Shown: piece by piece, positions 4,378 through 14,273 of the stretch
Position numbering within the stretch: position 1 is the first letter of the stretch
Layout of the letters: each line of letters begins with the position of its first letter
Origin: Bacillota bacterium
GTDB lineage: Bacteria; Bacillota; DTU030; DUMP01
Assembly (NCBI GenBank): GCA_030154105.1
Contig: JASKKP010000005.1
Coordinates: 1 to 64,000 of the forward strand
Direction: 5' to 3'
Length of the DNA stretch: 64,000 nt
Position numbers and translations under genes: made by a program
The notes under the pieces: model-generated
Seen by the model: only the letters and a program-made list of their open reading frames with translations
What the model was told of the DNA's origin: nothing
The model's database searches: none

Positions 4378-5982
4378 ATGGTCTGGGTGAGCCGGTGGGA
4401 AGCGGCGAAGGCCGCAGGGATTATCTTTATGGCAACGGTGGTTAGTAAGGTGCTGGGATTTGGGCGTGAGGCGGCGCTGGCAGCCGGGTTTGGAGCCAGC
4501 GCGGCCATGGATGCCTACCTGGTAGCCCAGGTGGTGCCGATGATGCTCCTCGGTTTAGTAGGTGCGGCGCTGACGACGGCGGCCATCCCGGTCTTTACCG
4601 CCTACGGTACGGCGGAGAAAAAAGAAGAGCTCTCCCGCGTGATCTGGAGCGTGTTTCACGCGGTGCTCTTGGCTCTTTCTGCCCTTACGCTGGTGGGCAT
4701 CTTCGTCTCTCCGCTTATAATCCGCCTGGTCGCTCCCGGCTTCTCCCCTGCCCAGGCCGAGCTCGCCGCCGGCCTGAGCCGTATCATTATGCCGACGATG
4801 CTCGTCCTCGGCCTTTCCGGGTGGGCCACGGCGGTGCTCCAGGCCCGCAAGAGCTTTGTTGCTCCGGCGGTGGTGGGTATTCCCAGCAACATCTGCCTTA
4901 TAATTTTTGCCCTTTGGGCCGCCCGGCACGGCGGCATTTACGCCCTCGCCTGGTTGACCGTCCTTGCTACGAGCACGCAGCTTCTCGTCCAGCTGCCTGC
5001 CCTTTTTAGACTCGGGTTTCGCTACCGGCCGGCTTTAGACCTTACCCACCCGGCGGTGCGGCGGATTGCGGTTCTTATGACGCCGGTAATACTCGGGGTG
5101 GCTATAGGCCAGATAAACACGGTGGTCGACCGCATCCTGGCCTCCGGCCTTTCAGAAGGAAGCATAGCGGCGCTGAGCTACGCCAACCGTGTGGCCATGC
5201 TCCCCATCGGCTTTCTCATCACTCCCATTCTCACCGTGTTTTATCCCAGTTTGGCGGCTCGGTGGTCGGCCGGTGAGCGCGTACGTTTCCGCGAACTGGT
5301 GGAGGAAGGTTTAAACATCTGCCTTTTTCTCTTGGTGCCCGTAACCGTCGGGCTGGCCCTTTTGCGCGTGGATATAGTGCGCTTTGTCTTCGAACGCGGT
5401 GCCTTTGACGCCCGGGCCACCCAGGCTACAGCCATTGCCGCTCTGTACTACGGCCTAGGGCTTCTGCCCATTGCTTGGCGCGACCACCTGAGCCGGGCCT
5501 ACTACGCCCTTCAGGACACGACTACTCCTGTTCTAACAGGGTTTGCCTCCATCGTAGCCAACGTCATCCTTAATTTTATCCTCGTCCGCTACATGGCTCA
5601 TGCTGGCCTCGCTCTGGCCACCACGCTGGCCAATTCCTTAGGCTGCCTTCTTCTCCTCATCCTATTACGCCGGCGTTTGGGCGGCCTGGGCGGAAAAAAG
5701 CTGGCCGCCAACGCGGCGCGGGTCCTTGCAGGCTCACTGGTGATGGCCGTGGTCGTTGCTTTTCTCCAGCGCTTCTTTCCTTGGCCGGGACCGGCTTTCA
5801 TCCGGCTTACGGGCCGCCTAACGTTTCTGCCCGGCCTGGTAACCTTTGCCGCCCAGGCTCTCCGACTTATTTTCTTCATCGGCGCCGGTGCGCTCACTTA
5901 CGCGTTGGTAATTGGGCGGCAGCTTCGGATCTACCTCAATGAATACAGACGGCAGAAAGCGGCTTTCGGCACACGGCACTAG
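4378..5982 (+). CDS. murJ: Lipid II flippase MurJ (MviN family)
   Basis: A polytopic membrane protein of about 534 residues of the MATE-like MurJ/MviN family, which moves lipid II across the cytoplasmic membrane in peptidoglycan synthesis. The family signature is clear at the N-terminus (VVSKVLGFGREAALAAGFG, then MDAYLVAQVVPMM) and in the middle (RVAMLPIGFLITPILTVFYPSLA). Fourteen or so hydrophobic segments can be followed. An in-frame ATG at 4300 would add 26 basic, non-homologous residues and has no ribosome site. The ATG at 4378 follows AGAGGGAAGG and begins almost exactly where family members begin, so it is preferred; a GTG at 4387 is a further option. It lies alone after the exporter operon and converges with the NYN gene. 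Confidence 0.88.
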   Translation: MVWVSRWEAAKAAGIIFMATVVSKVLGFGREAALAAGFGASAAMDAYLVAQVVPMMLLGLVGAALTTAAIPVFTAYGTAEKKEELSRVIWSVFHAVLLALSALTLVGIFVSPLIIRLVAPGFSPAQAELAAGLSRIIMPTMLVLGLSGWATAVLQARKSFVAPAVVGIPSNICLIIFALWAARHGGIYALAWLTVLATSTQLLVQLPALFRLGFRYRPALDLTHPAVRRIAVLMTPVILGVAIGQINTVVDRILASGLSEGSIAALSYANRVAMLPIGFLITPILTVFYPSLAARWSAGERVRFRELVEEGLNICLFLLVPVTVGLALLRVDIVRFVFERGAFDARATQATAIAALYYGLGLLPIAWRDHLSRAYYALQDTTTPVLTGFASIVANVILNFILVRYMAHAGLALATTLANSLGCLLLLILLRRRLGGLGGKKLAANAARVLAGSLVMAVVVAFLQRFFPWPGPAFIRLTGRLTFLPGLVTFAAQALRLIFFIGAGALTYALVIGRQLRIYLNEYRRQKAAFGTRH

Positions 5983-6003
5983 CTGCAGGCCGAAGAGAAC
6001 GGT

Positions 6004-6744
6004 CTAAATGGAGGCAATAGCCAGGGAGGGAGTTTTGAGGACGCGAACGTCGGCTTGCGGAGTATGTTCTATGACCTGGATGAAGACACCTTCGTCGATG
6101 AGGGAGGCCAGGGCTCGACGCACGGCGACTTCGTCGACCTGGCGAACTTTGCTGTAAATGGCTACAGTTTTGTTGAAGGTGACAAAGGGGTGGGTGCGGA
6201 TAGAGTTGGTGACGAAGGCTATGAGGTCGTCCCGATTAACCGGCGTCGCAGCAGGCTCTACCACCAGCTCGCGTACCTCGGAGGCGCTCTGGTACAGTTC
6301 GCGGCTGATGAAGTGCGGCAGCCCTACCACGACAATGTTTTTCTTGCAGCGCACGCGCAGGCGCGCCACCACGCTGGAAAAGTGCCCGTCGCCGGTGACG
6401 ATAACGAAGGTATTAATGTCTTCTTGATCTAAGTACGTGCCGTAAATAGCGTCCAGCATGGCGAAGTCGGTGTAATTCTTCGCCCTTTCGCGGGTTCTGT
6501 CGGAAGCGGCGTCGACCATTTCGATGCTCTGCGTCCGGAGGAGATACGCCGCGCGGCGAAGCTCCTCGGAGCTAGTTAGGTCGGCAAAGGCTTTGGCCAC
6601 CTTTAGTTCTCCGTACTCCGAAGCTATCCGGATTAGCTCTTCCGGCCTAGGGGAAATGCCGTACTGGTTGGCCAGGGTGAAAAAGAGGTACTCAAAGTCG
6701 ATAAAGAGAGCCACCTTTTGTTCTTTAGCCATTAACCTTATCAT
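6004..6744 (-). CDS. NYN-domain (LabA/DUF88-like) putative RNase with C-terminal helix-turn-helix region
   Basis: A 246-residue protein. Residues 8-165 fit the NYN/PIN-like nuclease fold: an early Asp in VALFIDFEYLF, a central Asp in NYTDFAMLDAIYG and the signature VIVTGDGHFSSVVARLR. These acidic residues would bind metal for RNA cleavage in active members. The C-terminal 75 residues (RDDLIAFVTNSIRTHPFVTF to the end) resemble the small winged-helix/OST-HTH-like modules often attached to NYN domains. The start could also be the ATG four codons in, since a purine-rich AAAAGGAAGG site lies just before the first ATG. It converges with murJ with only about 20 bases between stops. The biological target is unknown. 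Confidence 0.75.
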   Translation of the reverse strand: MIRLMAKEQKVALFIDFEYLFFTLANQYGISPRPEELIRIASEYGELKVAKAFADLTSSEELRRAAYLLRTQSIEMVDAASDRTRERAKNYTDFAMLDAIYGTYLDQEDINTFVIVTGDGHFSSVVARLRVRCKKNIVVVGLPHFISRELYQSASEVRELVVEPAATPVNRDDLIAFVTNSIRTHPFVTFNKTVAIYSKVRQVDEVAVRRALASLIDEGVFIQVIEHTPQADVRVLKTPSLAIASI

Positions 6745-6945
6745 CCTTCCTTTTAAGCTAAATTTTCTACTATTAGTCTTCCTATGGCGAGCTTCCTATA
6801 TACTGCCACGAGCTATTTTCTCGCGCCCTGCCCCACTCCTACCGGAACACCTATCAAACTTCAACCCTGGTGTTTAAGTCCCTGGATGATTCGAAGGGTG
6901 TATTATAATGTAGGCAAGACATGCTAATAGTGCGACAAAATAGAC

Positions 6946-6974
6946 TTGACATCGCCTTGCTAATATTATATAAT
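6946..6974 (+). promoter_or_regulatory. SigA-type promoter for the secreted M20 gene
   Basis: TTGACA at 6946-6951 and TATAAT at 6969-6974 are separated by exactly 17 bases, a perfect vegetative promoter match. The expected transcription start near 6981 lies about 70 bases before the ATG at 7053. Confidence 0.85.
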
Positions 6975-6983
6975 CCACCACAA

Positions 6984-7022
6984 CTAACCAGCGCGCAGGT
7001 TAGGCAAGGAGACCCCGGGGTC
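6984..7022. promoter_or_regulatory. Two palindromes at the transcription start (candidate operators)
   Basis: CTAACC (6984-6989) pairs with GGTTAG (6998-7003) across eight bases, placed almost at the predicted start site. A 12-base perfect palindrome GACCCCGGGGTC follows at 7011-7022. Both lie between the -10 box and the ribosome site, where a repressor would act. The RpiR regulator encoded downstream is the obvious candidate, but this is inference. Confidence 0.4.
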
Positions 7023-7052
7023 ACCCATTCTTGGGGCAAGGGGGATATTACT

Positions 7053-8381
7053 ATGCCGGTAGGCAGAAGACTGCGGCGGCTCCTGGCGCCGGCCCTAACC
7101 TTGGTTTTACTGCTTTCTTTAACCATCCAGGCGGCACCGCGGGCCGATAAGCTGCGCGCCGATGCTGTGGCCCTGGTTGAAGCTCAGGCCCAAAAGCTTT
7201 ACGAGATGGGGGACTGGATGTACAAGAACCCAGAACCTGGTTACCATGAATTTGAAGCAGTGAAGCTCCTCACAGGTTACCTCAAGGAGAATGGGTTCAA
7301 CGTGGAGGTGGGCGTGGCCGGGCTAGAAACGGCCTTCAAAGCCACTTTCCAGCAAGGGAGCGGTGGACCTACCGTGGCCTACATTGTGGAGTATGACGCG
7401 CTGCGCGGCCCGGGGGGCAAGGCCTTCCACGGCTGCCAGCACAACCTACAGGGTCCGGCCGGTCTGGGCGCAGCCGTAGCCTTGAAACAGGTCATGGAGA
7501 AAAACAAGATTCCGGGCTGCGTTTGGGTGGTAGGCACTCCGGCGGAGGAGATACCGCCACCGGCGAAAGGCAAGATGCTTGCCGCCGGCGTTTTCGACGG
7601 CGCGGACGTGCTCCTCATGTTCCACGGCAGCGGCACTACCAGCCGCCTCGCCCCAGGCTGGTCGGGGGTGACTCTGGATTCAACCCGGTACCTCTTTAAG
7701 GGCAAGAGCGCCCACGCCTCCGGCGACCCCTGGAACGGGCTCGATGCGCTCGATGCCGTCCGCCTGATGTTCGCGGCGGTTGACGCTTACCGCGAACACA
7801 TCCTTCCGGACGCCCGCATTCACGGCGTAATCACCAAAGGCGGCGACGCTCCCAACGTCATCCCCTCCGTCGCCGAGGCCGACTTCTTCTACCGCCATCC
7901 TACCCGCGAGTATGTGGATAAAATGGGCGAGCGCATGGCGAACATTGCTAGGGCGGCGGCCATGATGACCGGGACCGAGGTAGAGATCACCAACTACGGC
8001 AAATACTACAACACCCTGGCCTTGGCCGCCCTCGAAGAGCGCGCCTTTGCCTATGCCAAGCAGTACGGGGCGCAGGCTGTGGATGAAGAGCCAAAGGCGG
8101 GTGGTTCCACCGACTTTGCGGAGCTCTCTGGTAAGTTCCCGGCCATCTCCCTGAGCATAGCCAGCAAGCCGAAGGACGCGGCCGGGCACTCTGTCGAAGC
8201 TGCCGATGCCACCGTTGCCGAAATTGGGCACCAGGGGATGCTCGTTGCCTCCAAAGTTTTGGCCTCGCTCGGGATCGACATTATTACGGACGCCAGGTAC
8301 CTAAAGAGCATTAAGGACGAGTTCAAGAAGGCGGGCCCTGCGCCCACCCTGGCCACATATAAGAAGGTGGTTCGCTGGTAG
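7053..8381 (+). CDS. Secreted M20-family amidohydrolase (AbgB-like)
   Basis: A 442-residue hydrolase starting at the ATG at 7053, preceded by AAGGGGG seven bases upstream; an upstream in-frame start would read through the promoter. Residues 1-27 form a Sec signal peptide (basic RRLRRLL, hydrophobic ALTLVLLLSLTI, then AAPRA), so the enzyme is probably exported. The M20 dinuclear metal pattern is recognisable: GCQHN where most homologues have GCGHN, PAEE with the catalytic Glu, a dimerisation region with SAHASGDPWNGLDALDA, and a late His in AAGHSVEA. AbgB and related proteins cleave N-acyl or p-aminobenzoyl amino acids. The gene stands before, but is separated by a terminator from, an RpiR - opine dehydrogenase - symporter set, so it may supply their substrate outside the cell. 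Confidence 0.88.
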   Translation: MPVGRRLRRLLAPALTLVLLLSLTIQAAPRADKLRADAVALVEAQAQKLYEMGDWMYKNPEPGYHEFEAVKLLTGYLKENGFNVEVGVAGLETAFKATFQQGSGGPTVAYIVEYDALRGPGGKAFHGCQHNLQGPAGLGAAVALKQVMEKNKIPGCVWVVGTPAEEIPPPAKGKMLAAGVFDGADVLLMFHGSGTTSRLAPGWSGVTLDSTRYLFKGKSAHASGDPWNGLDALDAVRLMFAAVDAYREHILPDARIHGVITKGGDAPNVIPSVAEADFFYRHPTREYVDKMGERMANIARAAAMMTGTEVEITNYGKYYNTLALAALEERAFAYAKQYGAQAVDEEPKAGGSTDFAELSGKFPAISLSIASKPKDAAGHSVEAADATVAEIGHQGMLVASKVLASLGIDIITDARYLKSIKDEFKKAGPAPTLATYKKVVRW

Positions 8382-8416
8382 CTGTTGGCAACTCAAGTAT
8401 TCGATAAGAAGTAATC

Positions 8417-8451
8417 AGCCGGATCTGCCCCCGGGCAGGTCTGGCTTTTTC
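8417..8451 (+). terminator. Intrinsic terminator after the M20 gene
   Basis: AGCCGGATCTGCCC pairs with GGGCAGGTCTGGCT, with two mismatches, around a CC loop, and is followed by TTTTT. It ends the M20 transcript before the regulator gene. Confidence 0.85.
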
Positions 8452-8617
8452 TTGCCTGAGAATGATACTTTTCTAACAATGAAGGAAAACTCGGCAAGTA
8501 GATCTAATAAGTATGATGTACAGACTGCAACCATATTAATCATTGATGGTGCAGCTGCATCCGTCATAAAATTATGCAACAGCAATGGCGATTGATAAAC
8601 AACTAAGGGGGGACTTC

Positions 8618-9478
8618 ATGAACAAAGCCAAAGAAACCTTCAGCCGCCGCCTGAAGGAGAAATGTAACGAGCTTACGCCTGCCCAACGGCGCATGGGGGA
8701 TTATCTCCTGGAACACCTTGAGGAAGTAGCTTATACCTCGGCGGCGCAGCTGGGCAGGCAGGCGGGCGTCAGCGAATCCACTGTGCTTCGCCTGCTGACT
8801 CGCCTGGGGTACGACGGGTTTGCTGCCTTTCAGAAAGCAGTGCAGAAGGACCTTACCATTCCAATTACCCTTGAGCGCCTTAACCAAACTGCCAGCCATG
8901 TAGGTACTAAGGGGGCCGTATGGGAAGAATCCTTTGCTATGGACAAGGATAATTTGAACAACGCCCTGGCCCAAGTTACCCCATCTGACTTTGAGAGGGC
9001 GGTAGGCTACCTCACTCAAGCGCGACAGATCTACGTGATCGGCCTGCGCTCTTCCTACGCTGCTGCCTATTTCCTGGCCTTTACCCTGAACGCAGTGCGC
9101 GGCAACGCCCGCTGCCTCAGCCCTGGGGTGGGCGACCTGGCAGAAGGCCTCCGGGCTATCGGACCCGAGGATGTTGTGGTGGGTATAGCGTTCCCGCGCT
9201 ACACCCGCGACACTGTGCGCGTCCTCCAGTTTGCCCGCGGGCGCGGGGCGCATACGATCGCCCTGACGGACGGCGTATCCTCGCCGCTCGCCCCTTTGGC
9301 CGACGTGGTTTTTTTCCTTCCCAACGCATCCCTACACCCCATTGGTTCGGCTGTGCCGGCGGTGGCTTTTGCCAATGCGCTTGTAAGTGCGGTGGCTTTA
9401 GCACAAAAGAAGGAGGTGATGGGTGTTCTCGCGGCCGTGGAAGAAGCTTTCGATTTGTTGGAAACCTTTGCCCGTTAA
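8618..9478 (+). CDS. MurR/RpiR-family transcriptional regulator
   Basis: A 286-residue regulator with an N-terminal helix-turn-helix of the RpiR type (TPAQRRMGDYLLEHLEEVAY, then AAQLGRQAGVSESTVLRLLTRLGYDGFAAF) and a C-terminal SIS domain (about residues 120-250, including IYVIGLRSSYAAAYFLAF). SIS domains usually bind phosphosugars, but RpiR proteins also control amino-acid and opine pathways. The ATG at 8618 follows AGGGGGGA; an in-frame ATG 11 codons earlier lacks a site. It precedes the dehydrogenase by about 40 bases and the symporter beyond it, so it probably regulates this cassette. The 170 bases upstream contain a weak ACCAT-N11-ATGGT inverted repeat near 8531. Confidence 0.9.
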   Translation: MNKAKETFSRRLKEKCNELTPAQRRMGDYLLEHLEEVAYTSAAQLGRQAGVSESTVLRLLTRLGYDGFAAFQKAVQKDLTIPITLERLNQTASHVGTKGAVWEESFAMDKDNLNNALAQVTPSDFERAVGYLTQARQIYVIGLRSSYAAAYFLAFTLNAVRGNARCLSPGVGDLAEGLRAIGPEDVVVGIAFPRYTRDTVRVLQFARGRGAHTIALTDGVSSPLAPLADVVFFLPNASLHPIGSAVPAVAFANALVSAVALAQKKEVMGVLAAVEEAFDLLETFAR

Positions 9479-9518
9479 CGCGACAAAATCTAAGCAATGA
9501 GAAAAGGAGATGTTTTCG

Positions 9519-10619
9519 GTGCGCTTACGCCGTGACACAATCGCTGTGATAGGGGGTGGTAACGGTGCGCGAGCCTTTGCTGGGCATCTCGCCCTAAAGG
9601 GGGCTACCGTGCGCCTGGCCAGCCGCTTTCCAGACGAGCTGGCCGGCATCGCCGAAGCTGGAGGCGTGACCGTAGAGGGGGCAATCACCGGCTTTGGCCG
9701 TGTGGAGGTGGTGGGCGCTGACTTCGAACGAGCGTTGCAAGATGCCGCTCTCATTTTGGTGGTGGTCCCGGCCTTTGCCCACCGGGAAATAGCCCGGGCC
9801 CTCGCTCCCTATCTTGTCGACGAGCAAACAGTTGTCCTCAACCCGGGCCGCACGGGTGGCGCCCTGGAGTTTGCCCACGTGCTTCGGGAAAGCGGCTGCC
9901 GTGCCCGTGTTTACCTGGCTGAAACGCAGACACTCCTTTACGCCTGTCGGGCCGTAGGGGTATCCGCGGTAAGCATTAAAGGAATCAAGAAAGAAGTGGC
10001 CCTGGCTGCTTTTCCGGCCGTCGACACTCCGGCGGTACTGGCTGCTTTAAAGCCGCACTTTACGGAGTTTAAACCTGCACCTACAGTTTTGGAAACGAGT
10101 CTTATGAACATCGGGGCTGTGTTTCACCCTGCTACGGTGCTTCTTAACGCCGGGCGCGTGGAAGCCGGAGAAGATTTTGAGTTCTACCGCCACGGCATGA
10201 CGCCCGGGGTTGCAGCAGTGCTGGAACAGATTGATGCAGAGCGCGTGGCCGTGGCCCGGAAGCTAAACGCCCATGTGCTTACGGCCAAAGAATGGCTGGC
10301 GGCTGTGTACGGCGCCAAAGGGAATAATTTGCGAGAAGCGCTTCTCAACAATCCGGCCTACCACGGTATCAAAGCGCCCACCAGCCTACACGTGCGCTAT
10401 CTCCTGGAAGATTTGCCCACCGGCCTTGTTCCCCTTGTTTCCCTAGGCGAAGTTGCAGGTGAGCCTACTCCCACTTGTCGGGCAGTTGTCGACCTCGGCA
10501 ACGCGGCTTTAGGGGAAAACTTCTGGCGGACCGGGCGCACGGCGGCCAACTTAGGATTAGCCGGATTGGACAGCTCCACGTTGCGGGTGTACCTAGAAAC
10601 CGGAAGAAAGGAGAAGTAG
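9519..10619 (+). CDS. NAD(P)-dependent octopine/nopaline dehydrogenase family protein
   Basis: About 366 residues. The N-terminal Rossmann domain has the dinucleotide-binding GGGNGARAFAGHLALKG, and the C-terminal helical domain matches opine dehydrogenases (SLMNIGAVFHPATVLLNAG, with the conserved NxxxHP-like His, and FYRHGMTPGVAAVLEQID). Family members reversibly couple an amino acid and a 2-oxo acid to make N-carboxyalkyl amino acids (opines), or run in reverse for catabolism. The GTG at 9519 lies nine bases after AAGGAG; the ATG at 9510 directly abuts that site and would be poorly placed. It is sandwiched between an RpiR regulator and a GltS-type symporter four bases downstream. The exact substrate is unknown; oxidation of an imported opine or secondary amine is an inference. 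Confidence 0.87.
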   Translation: MRLRRDTIAVIGGGNGARAFAGHLALKGATVRLASRFPDELAGIAEAGGVTVEGAITGFGRVEVVGADFERALQDAALILVVVPAFAHREIARALAPYLVDEQTVVLNPGRTGGALEFAHVLRESGCRARVYLAETQTLLYACRAVGVSAVSIKGIKKEVALAAFPAVDTPAVLAALKPHFTEFKPAPTVLETSLMNIGAVFHPATVLLNAGRVEAGEDFEFYRHGMTPGVAAVLEQIDAERVAVARKLNAHVLTAKEWLAAVYGAKGNNLREALLNNPAYHGIKAPTSLHVRYLLEDLPTGLVPLVSLGEVAGEPTPTCRAVVDLGNAALGENFWRTGRTAANLGLAGLDSSTLRVYLETGRKEK

Positions 10620-10622
10620 AAC

Positions 10623-11990
10623 ATGAACTTTACGGCCTGGAGTGTTTTCGTCGATTTTGGCCTTATGGGCGGGCTCCTGGTCTTAGGCCAAATCCTGCGC
10701 GCCAAGGTTAAGCTCTTTCAGGATCTCCTTCTCCCTGCTGCTCTCATCGCCGGCTTCCTGGCTTGGGCGCTTGGACCTAACGGGCTAGGCTGGTTGCCCT
10801 TCTCCGGCTCGGTAGGCACCTATTCCAGCGTCCTTATTATCCTCGTTTTTGCTTCCATGCCCATTGGGGACAAACCAGTGGACTGGCGTAAAAGCGGTCG
10901 GGGCATCGGCGAGATGTTCACTAACTACACAGGGATCGCCCTCGCCCAGTACGGCCTGGGAATGGTCCTTTCCCTATACATCCTAGGAGCAATTTGGAAA
11001 TTGCACCCAGGCTTTGGCTTGATGCTGGCCACTGGCTTTTATGGCGGGCACGGAACAGCTGCCGCTGTAGGCGCGGCTTTTGAGGGCCTAGGTTGGGATG
11101 AAGCCCTAGGCCTCGGTATGACCTCGGCTACGGTAGGAATTATCGGCGGTATCGTCGGCGGTGTAGCACTCATCAACTGGGCTACCCGAAAAAGGATTAC
11201 TAGTTTCATCGAGTCTCCAAGCGAACTCCCCCGCGAGCTGCGCACGGGTTTGGTGGTTCCGGAAAATCAAAAGTCCCTTGGCAAGGCCACCGTTGCCTCC
11301 ATATCCATCGACCCGCTTACTTTCCATCTCGCCCTAATCCTAATTCCGTCGCTCATCGGCTATTACCTTTCCAAATGGGTTAGTGCTTTAAATAAGAACC
11401 TACAGATTCCAGGATTTGCTTGGGCGCTTATCGTCGCCTACGTGCTTCAGTATCTTCTCCTTAAAACCGGGACAAACAAGTATGTGGACCGCGCCACGAT
11501 TACCCGCATCAGCGGCACCGCTACTGACCTCCTCATTGTTGCCGGCATGGAATCCATCAAACTTTCGGTAATCGTAAAATACGCTGTTCCGCTGGCCATC
11601 CTGTTCGCTTTTGGTTTTATTCTCAACTGGGTCTGGCTGATGTACTTGGGGTCCCACATGTCCCGGGAATACTGGTTTGAGCGCAACATGATCGTTTGGG
11701 GCAGCGCCTGCGGCGTTCTCACTACCGGTATCATGCTGCTCCGTGTAGTGGATCCTGAGTTTAAGTCCCGGGCCATGGAAGATACCGCGGCTGCCTTGGT
11801 GCTGAACCGCCCCATTGTGATTGCCCTAACTGCCCTGCCGCCGCTTCTTGTTGCCCGGGGCCTCGCCGGCCCGTTCACCTGGGTTACGCTGGGTGCCCTT
11901 CTCTTAGTGATGGTTGCCGCTCGCATCTTCGGCTGGTGGACACCGCGGGTTCCGGTGGCCAATCCCACCCGAGTAAGCGACCGGGCTTAG
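10623..11990 (+). CDS. Sodium:glutamate symporter (GltS)-family transporter
   Basis: A 455-residue membrane protein with ten or more hydrophobic segments and the duplicated GltS layout. Recognisable stretches are GLMLATGFYGGHGTAAAVGAAFE in the first half and the second re-entrant-like region around WGSACGVLTTGIMLLRVVDP. GltS carriers import glutamate or related acidic amino acids with sodium. AAAGGAGAAG precedes the ATG, and the gene begins four bases after the opine dehydrogenase stop, so the two are almost certainly co-transcribed. The substrate is therefore more likely an opine or other amino-acid derivative than plain glutamate, but that is inferred from context. Confidence 0.82.
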   Translation: MNFTAWSVFVDFGLMGGLLVLGQILRAKVKLFQDLLLPAALIAGFLAWALGPNGLGWLPFSGSVGTYSSVLIILVFASMPIGDKPVDWRKSGRGIGEMFTNYTGIALAQYGLGMVLSLYILGAIWKLHPGFGLMLATGFYGGHGTAAAVGAAFEGLGWDEALGLGMTSATVGIIGGIVGGVALINWATRKRITSFIESPSELPRELRTGLVVPENQKSLGKATVASISIDPLTFHLALILIPSLIGYYLSKWVSALNKNLQIPGFAWALIVAYVLQYLLLKTGTNKYVDRATITRISGTATDLLIVAGMESIKLSVIVKYAVPLAILFAFGFILNWVWLMYLGSHMSREYWFERNMIVWGSACGVLTTGIMLLRVVDPEFKSRAMEDTAAALVLNRPIVIALTALPPLLVARGLAGPFTWVTLGALLLVMVAARIFGWWTPRVPVANPTRVSDRA

Positions 11991-12035
11991 GGTTGCCGGC
12001 TACCCTTTCTCAGCTTAGCTCTTTGCCCTTTACCC

Positions 12036-12072
12036 CCGGCCCGTTTGTTTTTTCCACGGGCCGGCTTTAATT
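12036..12072 (+). terminator. Intrinsic terminator after the symporter gene
   Basis: CCGGCCCGT (12036-12044) pairs perfectly with ACGGGCCGG (12056-12064), followed by CTTTAATTT. It closes the RpiR - dehydrogenase - symporter transcript. Confidence 0.8.
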
Positions 12073-12117
12073 TGCCCCCACAAAAATAGCCTAGTATGCG
12101 AATAAAGCGGTAAAAGC

Positions 12118-12223
12118 GGGATCACCTAAGCACGTGGTCCCAAGTAAAGAGGGAGCGACCCTGCAAACAGGAAAAGCTACCAGCGGTCCCCAGCCGGGCA
12201 GGAATCACCCCCAACGGGTCGAA
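12118..12223 (+). other. Structured leader candidate upstream of sigI
   Basis: GGGATCAC (12118-12125) pairs with GTGGTCCC (12134-12141). A small hairpin CCTGCAAACAGG (12160-12171) and GC-rich segments follow before the ribosome site. I could not match this to a known riboswitch family. It may be a leader or simply hairpin-rich spacer. Confidence 0.3.
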
Positions 12224-12261
12224 TACATAAAAAAACGCAGGGCCCAAGAGGGGGAGAAGGA

Positions 12262-12993
12262 GTGGCGGCGTGCGAAGAGATTCGCACCCTGGTGGAGCGG
12301 GCCAGGCAGGGCGACGCATCGGCCCGTGAGGAGCTCATTGCTACCCACCGGGAGTACATACTAAAGATTGTGTCCTGGCGCTGTGGGCGGCCGCTGGACT
12401 GCCATAGCGATGAATTTAGCATTGGCCTTCTGGCATTCGATGAGGCCATAAACACTTACGACCCAATGCGCGGCGCTGCCTTTTTAAGTTACGCCCAGCG
12501 CGTCATCACGGCTCGCCTGGCCGACTACTATCGGCGGGAGAAGGCGCGCGGGCAGGAGGTGCCGCTGGAAGTGGCGGGGCCGGATGGTGAAACCTACATG
12601 CACCCTGAGGTGCTTACGGCGGCGGAAGAGAAGAGCGCCGAGGAAGAAAAGAGGCGCGAACGCGCCGAGGAAATTGCAGCTTTCAGCGCCGAGCTGGCGG
12701 CCTACGGTTTAACCCTAGAAGATCTCGAACGGAGCTCTCCCCGGCATCGCGATGCACGGGCGCGGCTTTTAAAAGCAGCAGATACCCTGGCCAGAAACCC
12801 TGAGCTTATGGAGCGCCTGCGCCGCACGCACCAGGTGCCGCTTAAGGAACTGGCGGAAAAAACAGGTTTGAGCTACAAGCTCTTAGAGCGCGGCCGCCGC
12901 TATATTCTCGCCGTAAGCCTGATACGCTCCAACCCGGCCTATACCCACCTGGCTGAATATGTAAAACCGGAGCAGAAGGGGGTTCAGGGGTGA
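12262..12993 (+). CDS. sigI: SigI-type RNA polymerase sigma factor
   Basis: A 243-residue sigma factor of the SigI group. The region-2-like segment runs REYILKIVSWRCGRPLDCHSD, then FSIGLLAFDEAINTYDPMRG and FLSYAQRVITARLADYYRRE, a pattern distinctive for SigI rather than ordinary ECF factors. The C-terminal region (TGLSYKLLERGRRYILAVSLI) supplies the helix-turn-helix for -35 binding. Translation starts at GTG after GGGGGAGAAGGA, and the stop overlaps the next gene's GTG (GTGA). In Bacillus SigI serves heat and wall stress; in cellulolytic Clostridia it controls polysaccharide-degrading enzymes. It is held by the membrane anti-sigma factor encoded next. The targets here are unknown. Confidence 0.92.
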   Translation: MAACEEIRTLVERARQGDASAREELIATHREYILKIVSWRCGRPLDCHSDEFSIGLLAFDEAINTYDPMRGAAFLSYAQRVITARLADYYRREKARGQEVPLEVAGPDGETYMHPEVLTAAEEKSAEEEKRRERAEEIAAFSAELAAYGLTLEDLERSSPRHRDARARLLKAADTLARNPELMERLRRTHQVPLKELAEKTGLSYKLLERGRRYILAVSLIRSNPAYTHLAEYVKPEQKGVQG

Positions 12994-14273
12994 GTCGCGG
13001 CAAAGCCTTAGTGCTTAAGACCTATAGCAACGGGATACTGGTCCTAACAGCCCAAGGCGAATTCCGCCGCTTAAAGAAGCACCCGCCCCTGCCCCAGCCC
13101 GGGGAAGAGATTGACTTGCAGCCGGCTTCCCGGGCTCGCTGGCTGCCTTTGGCCCTGGCGGCAGTTCTTATGCTCGCAGCCATCCTCCCGCTCAGGGCTT
13201 TGGCCTTACGCCCGGCTGCGTACATCGCCCTGGACATCAACCCGAGCCTCGGCCTTACGGTCGGGAGGAGCGGCACGGTAAAGAGCGCCGAAGGACTAAA
13301 CGCCGACGGTGCGCGCCTGCTGAAGGAGGTACAGGTGGTTGGGAAGCCGCCTGCCGTAGCGGTGGAAGCCTTGGTGCGACAGGCAGCCCTGGACGGCTAT
13401 TTGGCGGACCGGCCGGAAGATCTAGTGGTGGTGACCCGTGTGGATCTCGATGGCGGTTCTGCCGTTCCTCTAGGAGACTTGGAAGCCGCCGTCCGCCGTG
13501 CGCTGGAGAAGACCGGGCGGGACGCATTTGTTGCGGTGGAAGAGGCTCAGCCGTCGGAGCTTATGGAGGCCCGAAACGGCAACATCTCCCTCAATAAGCT
13601 GCGGCTTTTGAAAAAGCTGACGCCTGGTACCTCCCAGAAGCAGTTGCAACAAGAAGATGTGGTGAAGAATCGAGATGAAGGCATAAAAGAAATCCTGGCC
13701 CGCGCGGGCAAACGGGCAGATGAGGTGTACCCTGCCGGGCGTTGGGAAGGGAAGAATAATAAAAGCCAGAAGCCCGGCGGACCTGAAGTTCGAGAGGGGG
13801 CCGGCAAGAAGCCCGGGGAGCCCAAGCACCCGGCACAGTCGGAGCCGGCCGGAGAGCACTCGGCACAACCCAAACCGGGGGGCAAACCGGCCGGAGAGCA
13901 ATCAGCACAACCAAAACCGGGCAAACCGGCCGAAGAGCACTCGGCGCAGCCCAAGCCGGGTAAAAAAATAGCGCTTCCGGCCGGCGAGGCCAAGGTCGAG
14001 CCAACGGAGAGGATTCTTCCCCGCCGGCCGGAGCCGGCCCTAACTGAGGGGCCCGTGTCGGCACCCGGAGTGCGGGAAGAGTCCTCGTCGGCCGAGAAGG
14101 ACGGCGAAGAAAGGGAAACAGGAGGCGGAGCGGACAACAAGCAGGTACCGGATAAAGCGTCCCCAGGTGCCGGAAGCAAGAAAAAAGAGCCTTCCGACGC
14201 TTCCGGCTCTACCGGCGGCAAGAAAAAGAGCTCCACCCCGCGAGCGAAGGACCGCGCGGATAAGGAAAGCTGA
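12990..14273 (+). CDS. rsgI: RsgI-type transmembrane anti-sigma factor
   Basis: 427 residues. Residues 1-48 form the cytoplasmic SigI-binding domain (KALVLKTYSNGILVLTAQGE), 51-73 a membrane helix, and the rest is extracytoplasmic. The motif AYIALDINPSLGL (DINPS at 82-86) is the conserved RsgI segment in which the Asn-Pro bond is known in characterised homologues to undergo self-cleavage ahead of regulated proteolysis. The tail from about residue 230 is low-complexity Pro/Lys/Glu/Gln with three imperfect 13-14-residue repeats (PAGEHSAQPKPG type, about 286-326). It carries no recognisable carbohydrate-binding or hydrolase domain, unlike many clostridial RsgI proteins. It is translationally coupled to sigI. 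Confidence 0.9.
   Translation: MSRGKALVLKTYSNGILVLTAQGEFRRLKKHPPLPQPGEEIDLQPASRARWLPLALAAVLMLAAILPLRALALRPAAYIALDINPSLGLTVGRSGTVKSAEGLNADGARLLKEVQVVGKPPAVAVEALVRQAALDGYLADRPEDLVVVTRVDLDGGSAVPLGDLEAAVRRALEKTGRDAFVAVEEAQPSELMEARNGNISLNKLRLLKKLTPGTSQKQLQQEDVVKNRDEGIKEILARAGKRADEVYPAGRWEGKNNKSQKPGGPEVREGAGKKPGEPKHPAQSEPAGEHSAQPKPGGKPAGEQSAQPKPGKPAEEHSAQPKPGKKIALPAGEAKVEPTERILPRRPEPALTEGPVSAPGVREESSSAEKDGEERETGGGADNKQVPDKASPGAGSKKKEPSDASGSTGGKKKSSTPRAKDRADKES
13845..13965 (+). repeat. In-frame tandem repeat in the rsgI tail
   Basis: Three successive imperfect copies of a 39-42 base unit encode PAGEHSAQPKPGGK, PAGEQSAQPKPGK and PAEEHSAQPKPGK. The repeat could expand or contract by slippage without losing frame and would set the length of a wall-spanning stalk. 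Confidence 0.8.

What the first reader, a model, noticed from the sequence alone, without database searches (positions are those of the whole stretch)
7053..11990. Possible opine or acyl-amino-acid utilisation locus
A secreted AbgB-like amidohydrolase, an RpiR regulator, an opine-family dehydrogenase and a GltS-type symporter lie together, the last two only four bases apart. This combination suggests uptake and oxidation of an N-substituted amino acid released outside the cell. I do not know of a described pathway with this exact set.
Basis: inference. Interest (0 to 1): 0.6.

Follow-up and report, generated by a model that had tools for sequence, protein, structure and literature searches.

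The report
Acidic-opine dehydrogenase with glutamate-type symporter
A three-gene operon (RpiR regulator, opine dehydrogenase, GltS-type symporter) in an anaerobic Bacillota lineage probably takes up and splits, or possibly makes, an aspartate- or glutamate-based opine; the secreted amidohydrolase upstream is a separate gene unit, and in relatives the symporter's slot holds an uncharacterised B12 protein.

Summary
The four genes are real and intact. Three form the unit: RpiR (8618-9478), opine dehydrogenase (ODH, 9510-10619) and GltS-type symporter (10623-11990). This order occurs in all five genomes of the host family that carry this ODH. The amidohydrolase is HmrA/PM20D2-like rather than AbgB-like. 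It has its own promoter, palindrome and terminator, is linked only within the genus, and exists elsewhere without the ODH. The ODH matches CENDH (1bg6, 39% identity) and carries R114/G202, equivalent to R111/G198 in the Arthrobacter enzyme. Those two residues define metagenomic ODHs shown in vitro to prefer L-Asp/L-Glu plus pyruvate (PMC10787698). The predicted substrate is therefore an acidic N-(1-carboxyethyl) amino acid, which fits a GltS-type carrier. In the wider phylum the same R/G-type ODH is instead adjacent to a B12-binding protein (80 of 85 genomes), a link published in 2009 (PMC2667541). The window's ODH branch is nested in that clade, so the symporter appears to have taken the B12 gene's operon slot. 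I found no publication of the ODH-symporter pairing. Direction (catabolic or biosynthetic) and exact substrate are unproven.

The parts
6946..6974 (+). promoter of the amidohydrolase (TTGACA-17-TATAAT), separate from the ODH operon
   Evidence: perfect consensus match; kept in G001 and G002 apart from small changes
6984..7003 (.). operator-like palindrome CTAACC-AGCGCGCA-GGTTAG upstream of the amidohydrolase
   Evidence: one site per genome in G000, G001 and G002, always here; a similar TTACCCTGCGCGCGGGTAA precedes the orthologue in G007
7053..8381 (+). secreted M20D-type amidohydrolase/dipeptidase (442 aa, Sec-type signal sequence); neighbour, probably not part of the conserved unit
   Evidence: TIGR01891 193.8 bits, PF01546/PF07687; HmrA and PM20D2 closest in PDB; linked to ODH only in genus g1
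8417..8446 (+). intrinsic terminator (13-pair stem, TTTTCTT tail) between amidohydrolase and RpiR
   Evidence: pattern scan; hairpin kept with paired changes in G001 and G002
8618..9478 (+). RpiR-family regulator (HTH_6 + SIS domain)
   Evidence: PF01418 and PF01380 above cut-off; start from orthologues; an RpiR-type gene sits here in all five linked genomes
9510..10619 (+). opine dehydrogenase, R111/G198 type (window R114/G202), catalytic H206 and D301
   Evidence: PF02317 159.6 bits; 1bg6 E 3.7e-77; AlphaFold model matches 1bg6 with TM 0.91/0.96; residues
10623..11990 (+). GltS-type (ESS family) sodium/solute symporter
   Evidence: PF03616 87.1 bits against cut-off 26; directly downstream of ODH in G000, G001, G002, G004, G006

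Best explanation
RpiR-ODH-GltS is a small operon for uptake and cleavage of an acidic opine. The GltS-type symporter imports an N-(1-carboxyethyl) derivative of L-aspartate or L-glutamate. The dehydrogenase oxidises it with NAD(P)+ to pyruvate plus the free acidic amino acid, which glutamate dehydrogenase and pyruvate metabolism then use. RpiR controls expression. Shown: gene content, conserved linkage within the family, the active-site signature, and descent from B12-protein-linked dehydrogenases. Inferred: the substrate class (from two residues tested by mutagenesis in other enzymes). Further inferred: the catabolic direction and the transported compound. The upstream secreted hydrolase is a separate unit.
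For: ODH is CENDH-like. It has R at ArODH position 111 and G at 198, the pair that sets preference for L-Asp/L-Glu in six metagenomic ODHs (PMC10787698). The ODH-GltS gap is 3 bases, and RpiR-ODH-GltS is kept in 5 of 5 family genomes with this ODH. Of the five closest GltS homologues outside the family, four adjoin MttB-type quaternary-amine demethylases, and the in-genome paralogue adjoins amidohydrolase-superfamily genes. Glutamate dehydrogenase lies just upstream of the unit in G004 and G006 and elsewhere in the host genome. Catabolic precedent: Arthrobacter 1C grew on an opine and uses the homologous NAD+-dependent enzyme (PMC4575208).
Against: The mODHs were assayed in the synthetic direction, mostly with NADPH, and window position 35 is R, an NADPH mark. 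The reaction usually favours synthesis (general knowledge). GltS specificity cannot be read from sequence, and the NCBIfam scan gave no match. No natural source of acidic opines in this habitat is known to me. RpiR ligands are often sugar phosphates.
Confidence: 0.45

Rival explanations
1. Biosynthetic reading: the symporter imports glutamate or aspartate, and the ODH condenses it with pyruvate using NAD(P)H to make an acidic opine as a redox sink or compatible solute.
For: mODHs run well in this direction, most prefer NADPH, and most have R35 like the window enzyme. GltS-type carriers are named for glutamate. Opine formation is a known anaerobic redox sink in invertebrates (general knowledge).
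Against: Position 35 is Ser in three of the five family members (G001, G004, G006), so the NADPH mark is not kept. No export gene is seen. A symporter inside the operon fits substrate import for breakdown at least as well.
Confidence: 0.3
2. One reading: the secreted hydrolase releases the substrate outside the cell, and the operon imports and oxidises it.
For: Adjacent in all three genomes of the genus; the hydrolase has a signal sequence and conserved metal-ligand motifs.
Against: Separate promoter, palindrome and conserved terminator. In G004 and G006 the ODH-GltS unit lacks the neighbour. Orthologues occur in G007 without any ODH and in G012 on another contig from its ODH. The hydrolase palindrome travels with it to G007.
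Confidence: 0.1
3. The ODH keeps the substrate of the ancestral B12-linked pathway, and the symporter replaced the B12 enzyme by importing that pathway's intermediate.
For: The window's ODH clade is nested in the B12-linked clade (support 100/100 with its f2 sisters). The symporter occupies the same downstream slot. The R/G signature is shared. The B12 protein is absent from all 8 family genomes tested.
Against: The B12 protein's substrate is unknown. Its similarity to MutE is weak (E 6e-4; probability 29%). Operon slots can be refilled without functional continuity.
Confidence: 0.15

Closest known systems
Metagenomic acidic opine dehydrogenases mODH-45/47/48/49/55/582 (PMC10787698)
   Same: CENDH-type fold, about 40% identity to ArODH, R at position 111 and G at 198, catalytic His/Asp dyad; window also has R at position 35
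   Different: Those were studied as isolated enzymes without genome context; the window enzyme is untested and linked to a symporter
Arthrobacter sp. 1C CENDH/ArODH (PDB 1bg6)
   Same: Same fold (TM 0.91/0.96) and 39% identity; catabolic precedent on opines
   Different: A111/N198 in ArODH (apolar amino acids) against R/G in the window enzyme
Octopine dehydrogenase plus novel B12-dependent protein operon (PMC2667541; Hore_09740/09750 in PMC2626281)
   Same: Same R/G-type ODH, same position in the operon
   Different: B12-binding protein downstream instead of a GltS-type symporter; the B12 protein is absent from the host family
occ/noc opine catabolic regions with flavin opine oxidases (PMC4575208)
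   Same: Transporter plus opine-cleaving enzyme
   Different: ABC-type opine permeases and flavin oxidases against a symporter and an NAD(P)-dependent enzyme
HmrA / PM20D2 M20D peptidases (PDB 3ram, 7yh4)
   Same: Closest solved relatives of the upstream hydrolase
   Different: Window protein carries a signal sequence; its substrate is unknown

Membership tests
Opine dehydrogenase (PF02317), CENDH branch | PF02317 domain and Rossmann GxGxxG/A | tested here: met
   159.6 bits against cut-off 30; GGGNGA motif
Opine dehydrogenase (PF02317), CENDH branch | catalytic His-Asp dyad and fold | tested here: met
   H206 and D301 aligned to ArODH H202 and D297; Foldseek best 1bg6
Opine dehydrogenase (PF02317), CENDH branch | reductive amination or oxidation activity on opines | not testable with these tools
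   needs enzyme assay
Acidic-amino-acid mODH subclass | R at 111 and G at 198 (ArODH numbering) | tested here: met
   window R114 and G202; rule from PMC10787698
Octopine-DH/B12-protein operon | adjacent B12-binding protein | tested here: not met
   no match in the host or 7 family genomes; GltS in that slot
GltS / ESS sodium-glutamate symporter | PF03616 domain | tested here: met
   87.1 bits against cut-off 26
GltS / ESS sodium-glutamate symporter | glutamate transport | not testable with these tools
   needs transport assay; the NCBIfam scan gave no match
AbgAB p-aminobenzoyl-glutamate hydrolase | closest to AbgB, with AbgA partner and AbgT nearby | tested here: not met
   HmrA and PM20D2 are closer; no second M20 gene or AbgT family hit among the adjacent genes scanned
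RpiR regulators | HTH_6 plus SIS domains | tested here: met
occ/noc flavin opine oxidase systems | OoxAB/NoxAB genes | not tested
   no search of the genome for these genes was made

The most novel reading that the evidence does not exclude
In this family the symporter has replaced a B12-dependent enzyme. The dehydrogenase still handles the ancestral pathway's acidic opine (for example an opine of glutamate or of a rearranged, 3-methylaspartate-like amino acid), which the host no longer makes but imports from its community. That would link an orphan B12 protein family, known only as a genomic prediction since 2009, to acidic opine metabolism.
Probability: 0.15. Interest if true: 0.7.

Novelty: new variant of a known kind. 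Interest (0 to 1): 0.42.

Why it matters
The in vitro preference of the R111/G198 dehydrogenases for aspartate and glutamate has had no physiological setting. This operon ties one such enzyme to a glutamate-type carrier and a regulator, giving a concrete, testable substrate class. It also shows that the same enzyme type belongs to the unexplained octopine-dehydrogenase/B12-protein operon found in 85 of 398 sampled genomes of the phylum. The substrate of that orphan B12 family can therefore be sought among acidic amino-acid opines.

Tried and rejected
Rfam scan of 5900-13000: no RNA family. GltS against PDB sequences: nothing. Genome-contig scan with the ODH: only 5 loci, because degenerate patterns reach close relatives only. 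Structure of the B12 protein from three sequences: mean pLDDT 42, discarded. B12-protein profile against PDB: only the B12-binding domain is recognised, so the catalytic domain type is unproven. hhalign to MutE: probability 29%, weak. AbgB/AbgT reading rejected. Idea that the hydrolase palindrome also controls the ODH operon rejected: one site per genome, upstream of the hydrolase only. Idea that GDH is part of the operon in G004/G006: an intervening terminator-like hairpin (read by eye) makes it a neighbour, not a member. Literature on an ODH plus GltS pairing: none found in the held library. One paper search failed on an illegal term and one family search on wrong coordinates.

Full report
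WHAT IS THERE. The window carries, all on the + strand, an M20D amidohydrolase (7053-8381), an RpiR regulator (8618-9478), an opine dehydrogenase (9510-10619) and a GltS-type symporter (10623-11990). Pfam supports each: M20/M20_dimer, HTH_6+SIS, Octopine_DH (159.6 bits) and Glt_symporter (87.1 bits). The hydrolase start at 7053 is supported because a perfect TTGACA-N17-TATAAT promoter lies at 6946-6974, inside the longer ORF, and orthologues begin at the same place. Its closest solved relatives are HmrA and PM20D2, not AbgB.

WHAT BELONGS TOGETHER. In the host family, five genomes hold this ODH, and in all five the order is RpiR-ODH-GltS on one strand (positions). The hydrolase precedes it only in the three genomes of the genus; in G004 and G006 a glutamate dehydrogenase stands there instead. 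A 13-pair terminator at 8417-8446 separates the hydrolase from RpiR and is kept with paired changes in G001 and G002. The hydrolase has its own palindrome, CTAACC-N8-GGTTAG at 6984-7003, found once per genome, always upstream of the hydrolase. A similar element precedes the orthologue in G007, a genome without any ODH. In G012 the hydrolase and the ODH lie on different contigs. The hydrolase is therefore best treated as a neighbour. The RpiR proteins of G004/G006 are only about 33% identical to the window's, so the position is conserved better than the regulator.

WHAT THE DEHYDROGENASE IS. Its best solved relative is N-(1-D-carboxylethyl)-L-norvaline dehydrogenase 1bg6 (phmmer E 3.7e-77). An AlphaFold model (pLDDT 86.5) matches 1bg6 with TM 0.91/0.96 and 39% identity. 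The catalytic pair His202/Asp297 is H206/D301 in the window protein. A 2024 study characterised six hot-spring metagenome enzymes of about 40% identity to ArODH that prefer L-aspartate and L-glutamate with pyruvate. It traced the preference to Arg at 111 with Gly at 198, confirmed by a double mutant, and linked Arg at 35 to NADPH use (PMC10787698). The window enzyme has R35, R111 and G198 equivalents (R39, R114, G202). Among 68 ODH homologues compared here, every GltS-linked or B12-protein-linked one has the R/G pair, whereas the amidohydrolase-linked paralogues have S, G or N at 111 and N at 198. The predicted substrate class is thus an acidic opine. This rests on two residues and on assays of other enzymes.

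WHERE IT COMES FROM. In 398 genomes of the phylum, 113 have an ODH match and 85 have a B12-binding, weakly MutE-like protein of about 549 aa. All 85 also have the ODH (Fisher p 1e-62), and in 80 of them the two genes are within 3 kb on one strand, the B12 gene nearly always just downstream. This link was already published: Zhang et al. 2009 predicted the B12 family as always adjacent to pfam02317, with a D-Ala-D-Ala ligase nearby in some organisms (PMC2667541), and the Halothermothrix orenii genome paper notes the pair as an operon of unknown role (PMC2626281). The host family lacks the B12 protein in all 8 genomes tested. In the tree the five GltS-linked ODHs form one clade (100/99), sister to B12-linked ODHs of the neighbouring family (100/100), inside the larger B12-linked clade. 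The simplest reading is that the symporter took over the B12 gene's slot. GltS homologues occur in 38 of 398 genomes, with no overall association with ODH (Fisher p 0.45), and are adjacent to it only in the host family.

WHAT THE SYMPORTER MAY CARRY. Of the five closest GltS homologues outside the family (34-41% identity), four adjoin MttB-type methyltransferase genes, three of these with corrinoid proteins. One of the four (G301) also lies beside glutamate mutase genes and one (G381) beside histidine-utilisation genes. The paralogue in the host genome (63%) adjoins amidohydrolase-superfamily genes that look like D-aminoacylases. More distant homologues show no such pattern. This suggests, without proving, that this carrier subgroup handles N-substituted amino acids.

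MECHANISM AND DIRECTION. The favoured reading is import of an N-(1-carboxyethyl)-L-Asp/Glu and oxidation to pyruvate plus the amino acid. Glutamate dehydrogenase is available in the host (C43) and sits just upstream of the unit in two relatives. The catabolic use of a homologous enzyme has a precedent in Arthrobacter 1C (PMC4575208). Against it, the characterised relatives were assayed synthetically and often prefer NADPH, so a synthetic role remains a serious rival (0.30). Within the family position 35 is R in two and S in three members, so cofactor preference may differ.

VERDICT. The four-gene pathway is not supported. The ODH-GltS pairing appears to be a new variant of a known enzyme's genomic setting.

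Noticed in passing
L055:2703-5475; L033:490-5488; L061:7876-13744: R/G-type ODH next to a B12-binding protein of about 549-622 aa, with GlmL, D-Ala-D-Ala ligase-like and ornithine-racemase-like genes in some loci. The 2009 prediction can now be tied to acidic amino-acid opines through the R111/G198 signature.
   Followed up: partly
L055:3826-5475 and alignment A1: The B12-binding motif DxHxxG reads CxHxxG in most Bacillota copies of this protein but DxHxxG in L033, L034 and one Bacillota copy (L062).
   Followed up: no
L155:648-9919; L153:768-8953; L154, L156: GltS-type symporters beside MttB-type methyltransferases, most with corrinoid proteins, once with glutamate mutase genes and once with histidine-utilisation genes: possible demethylation of glutamate betaine or hercynine.
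   Followed up: partly
window 6984-7022: Two palindromes (CTAACC-N8-GGTTAG and GACCCCGGGGTC) between promoter and start of the secreted hydrolase; the first occurs once per genome in three genomes.
   Followed up: yes
L043 near 6670-7773 (G000:C3:81669-82772): Second ODH in the host with S at position 111 and N at 198; its orthologues in G001, G002 and G005 adjoin a 440-aa amidohydrolase.
   Followed up: partly
window 12262-14273: SigI-type sigma factor with an RsgI-like anti-sigma gene overlapping it, directly downstream of the symporter.
   Followed up: no
window 8548-8564: Conserved palindrome-like GATGGTGCAGCTGCATC upstream of RpiR in three genomes of the genus (G002 differs by one base); candidate RpiR operator.
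   Followed up: no
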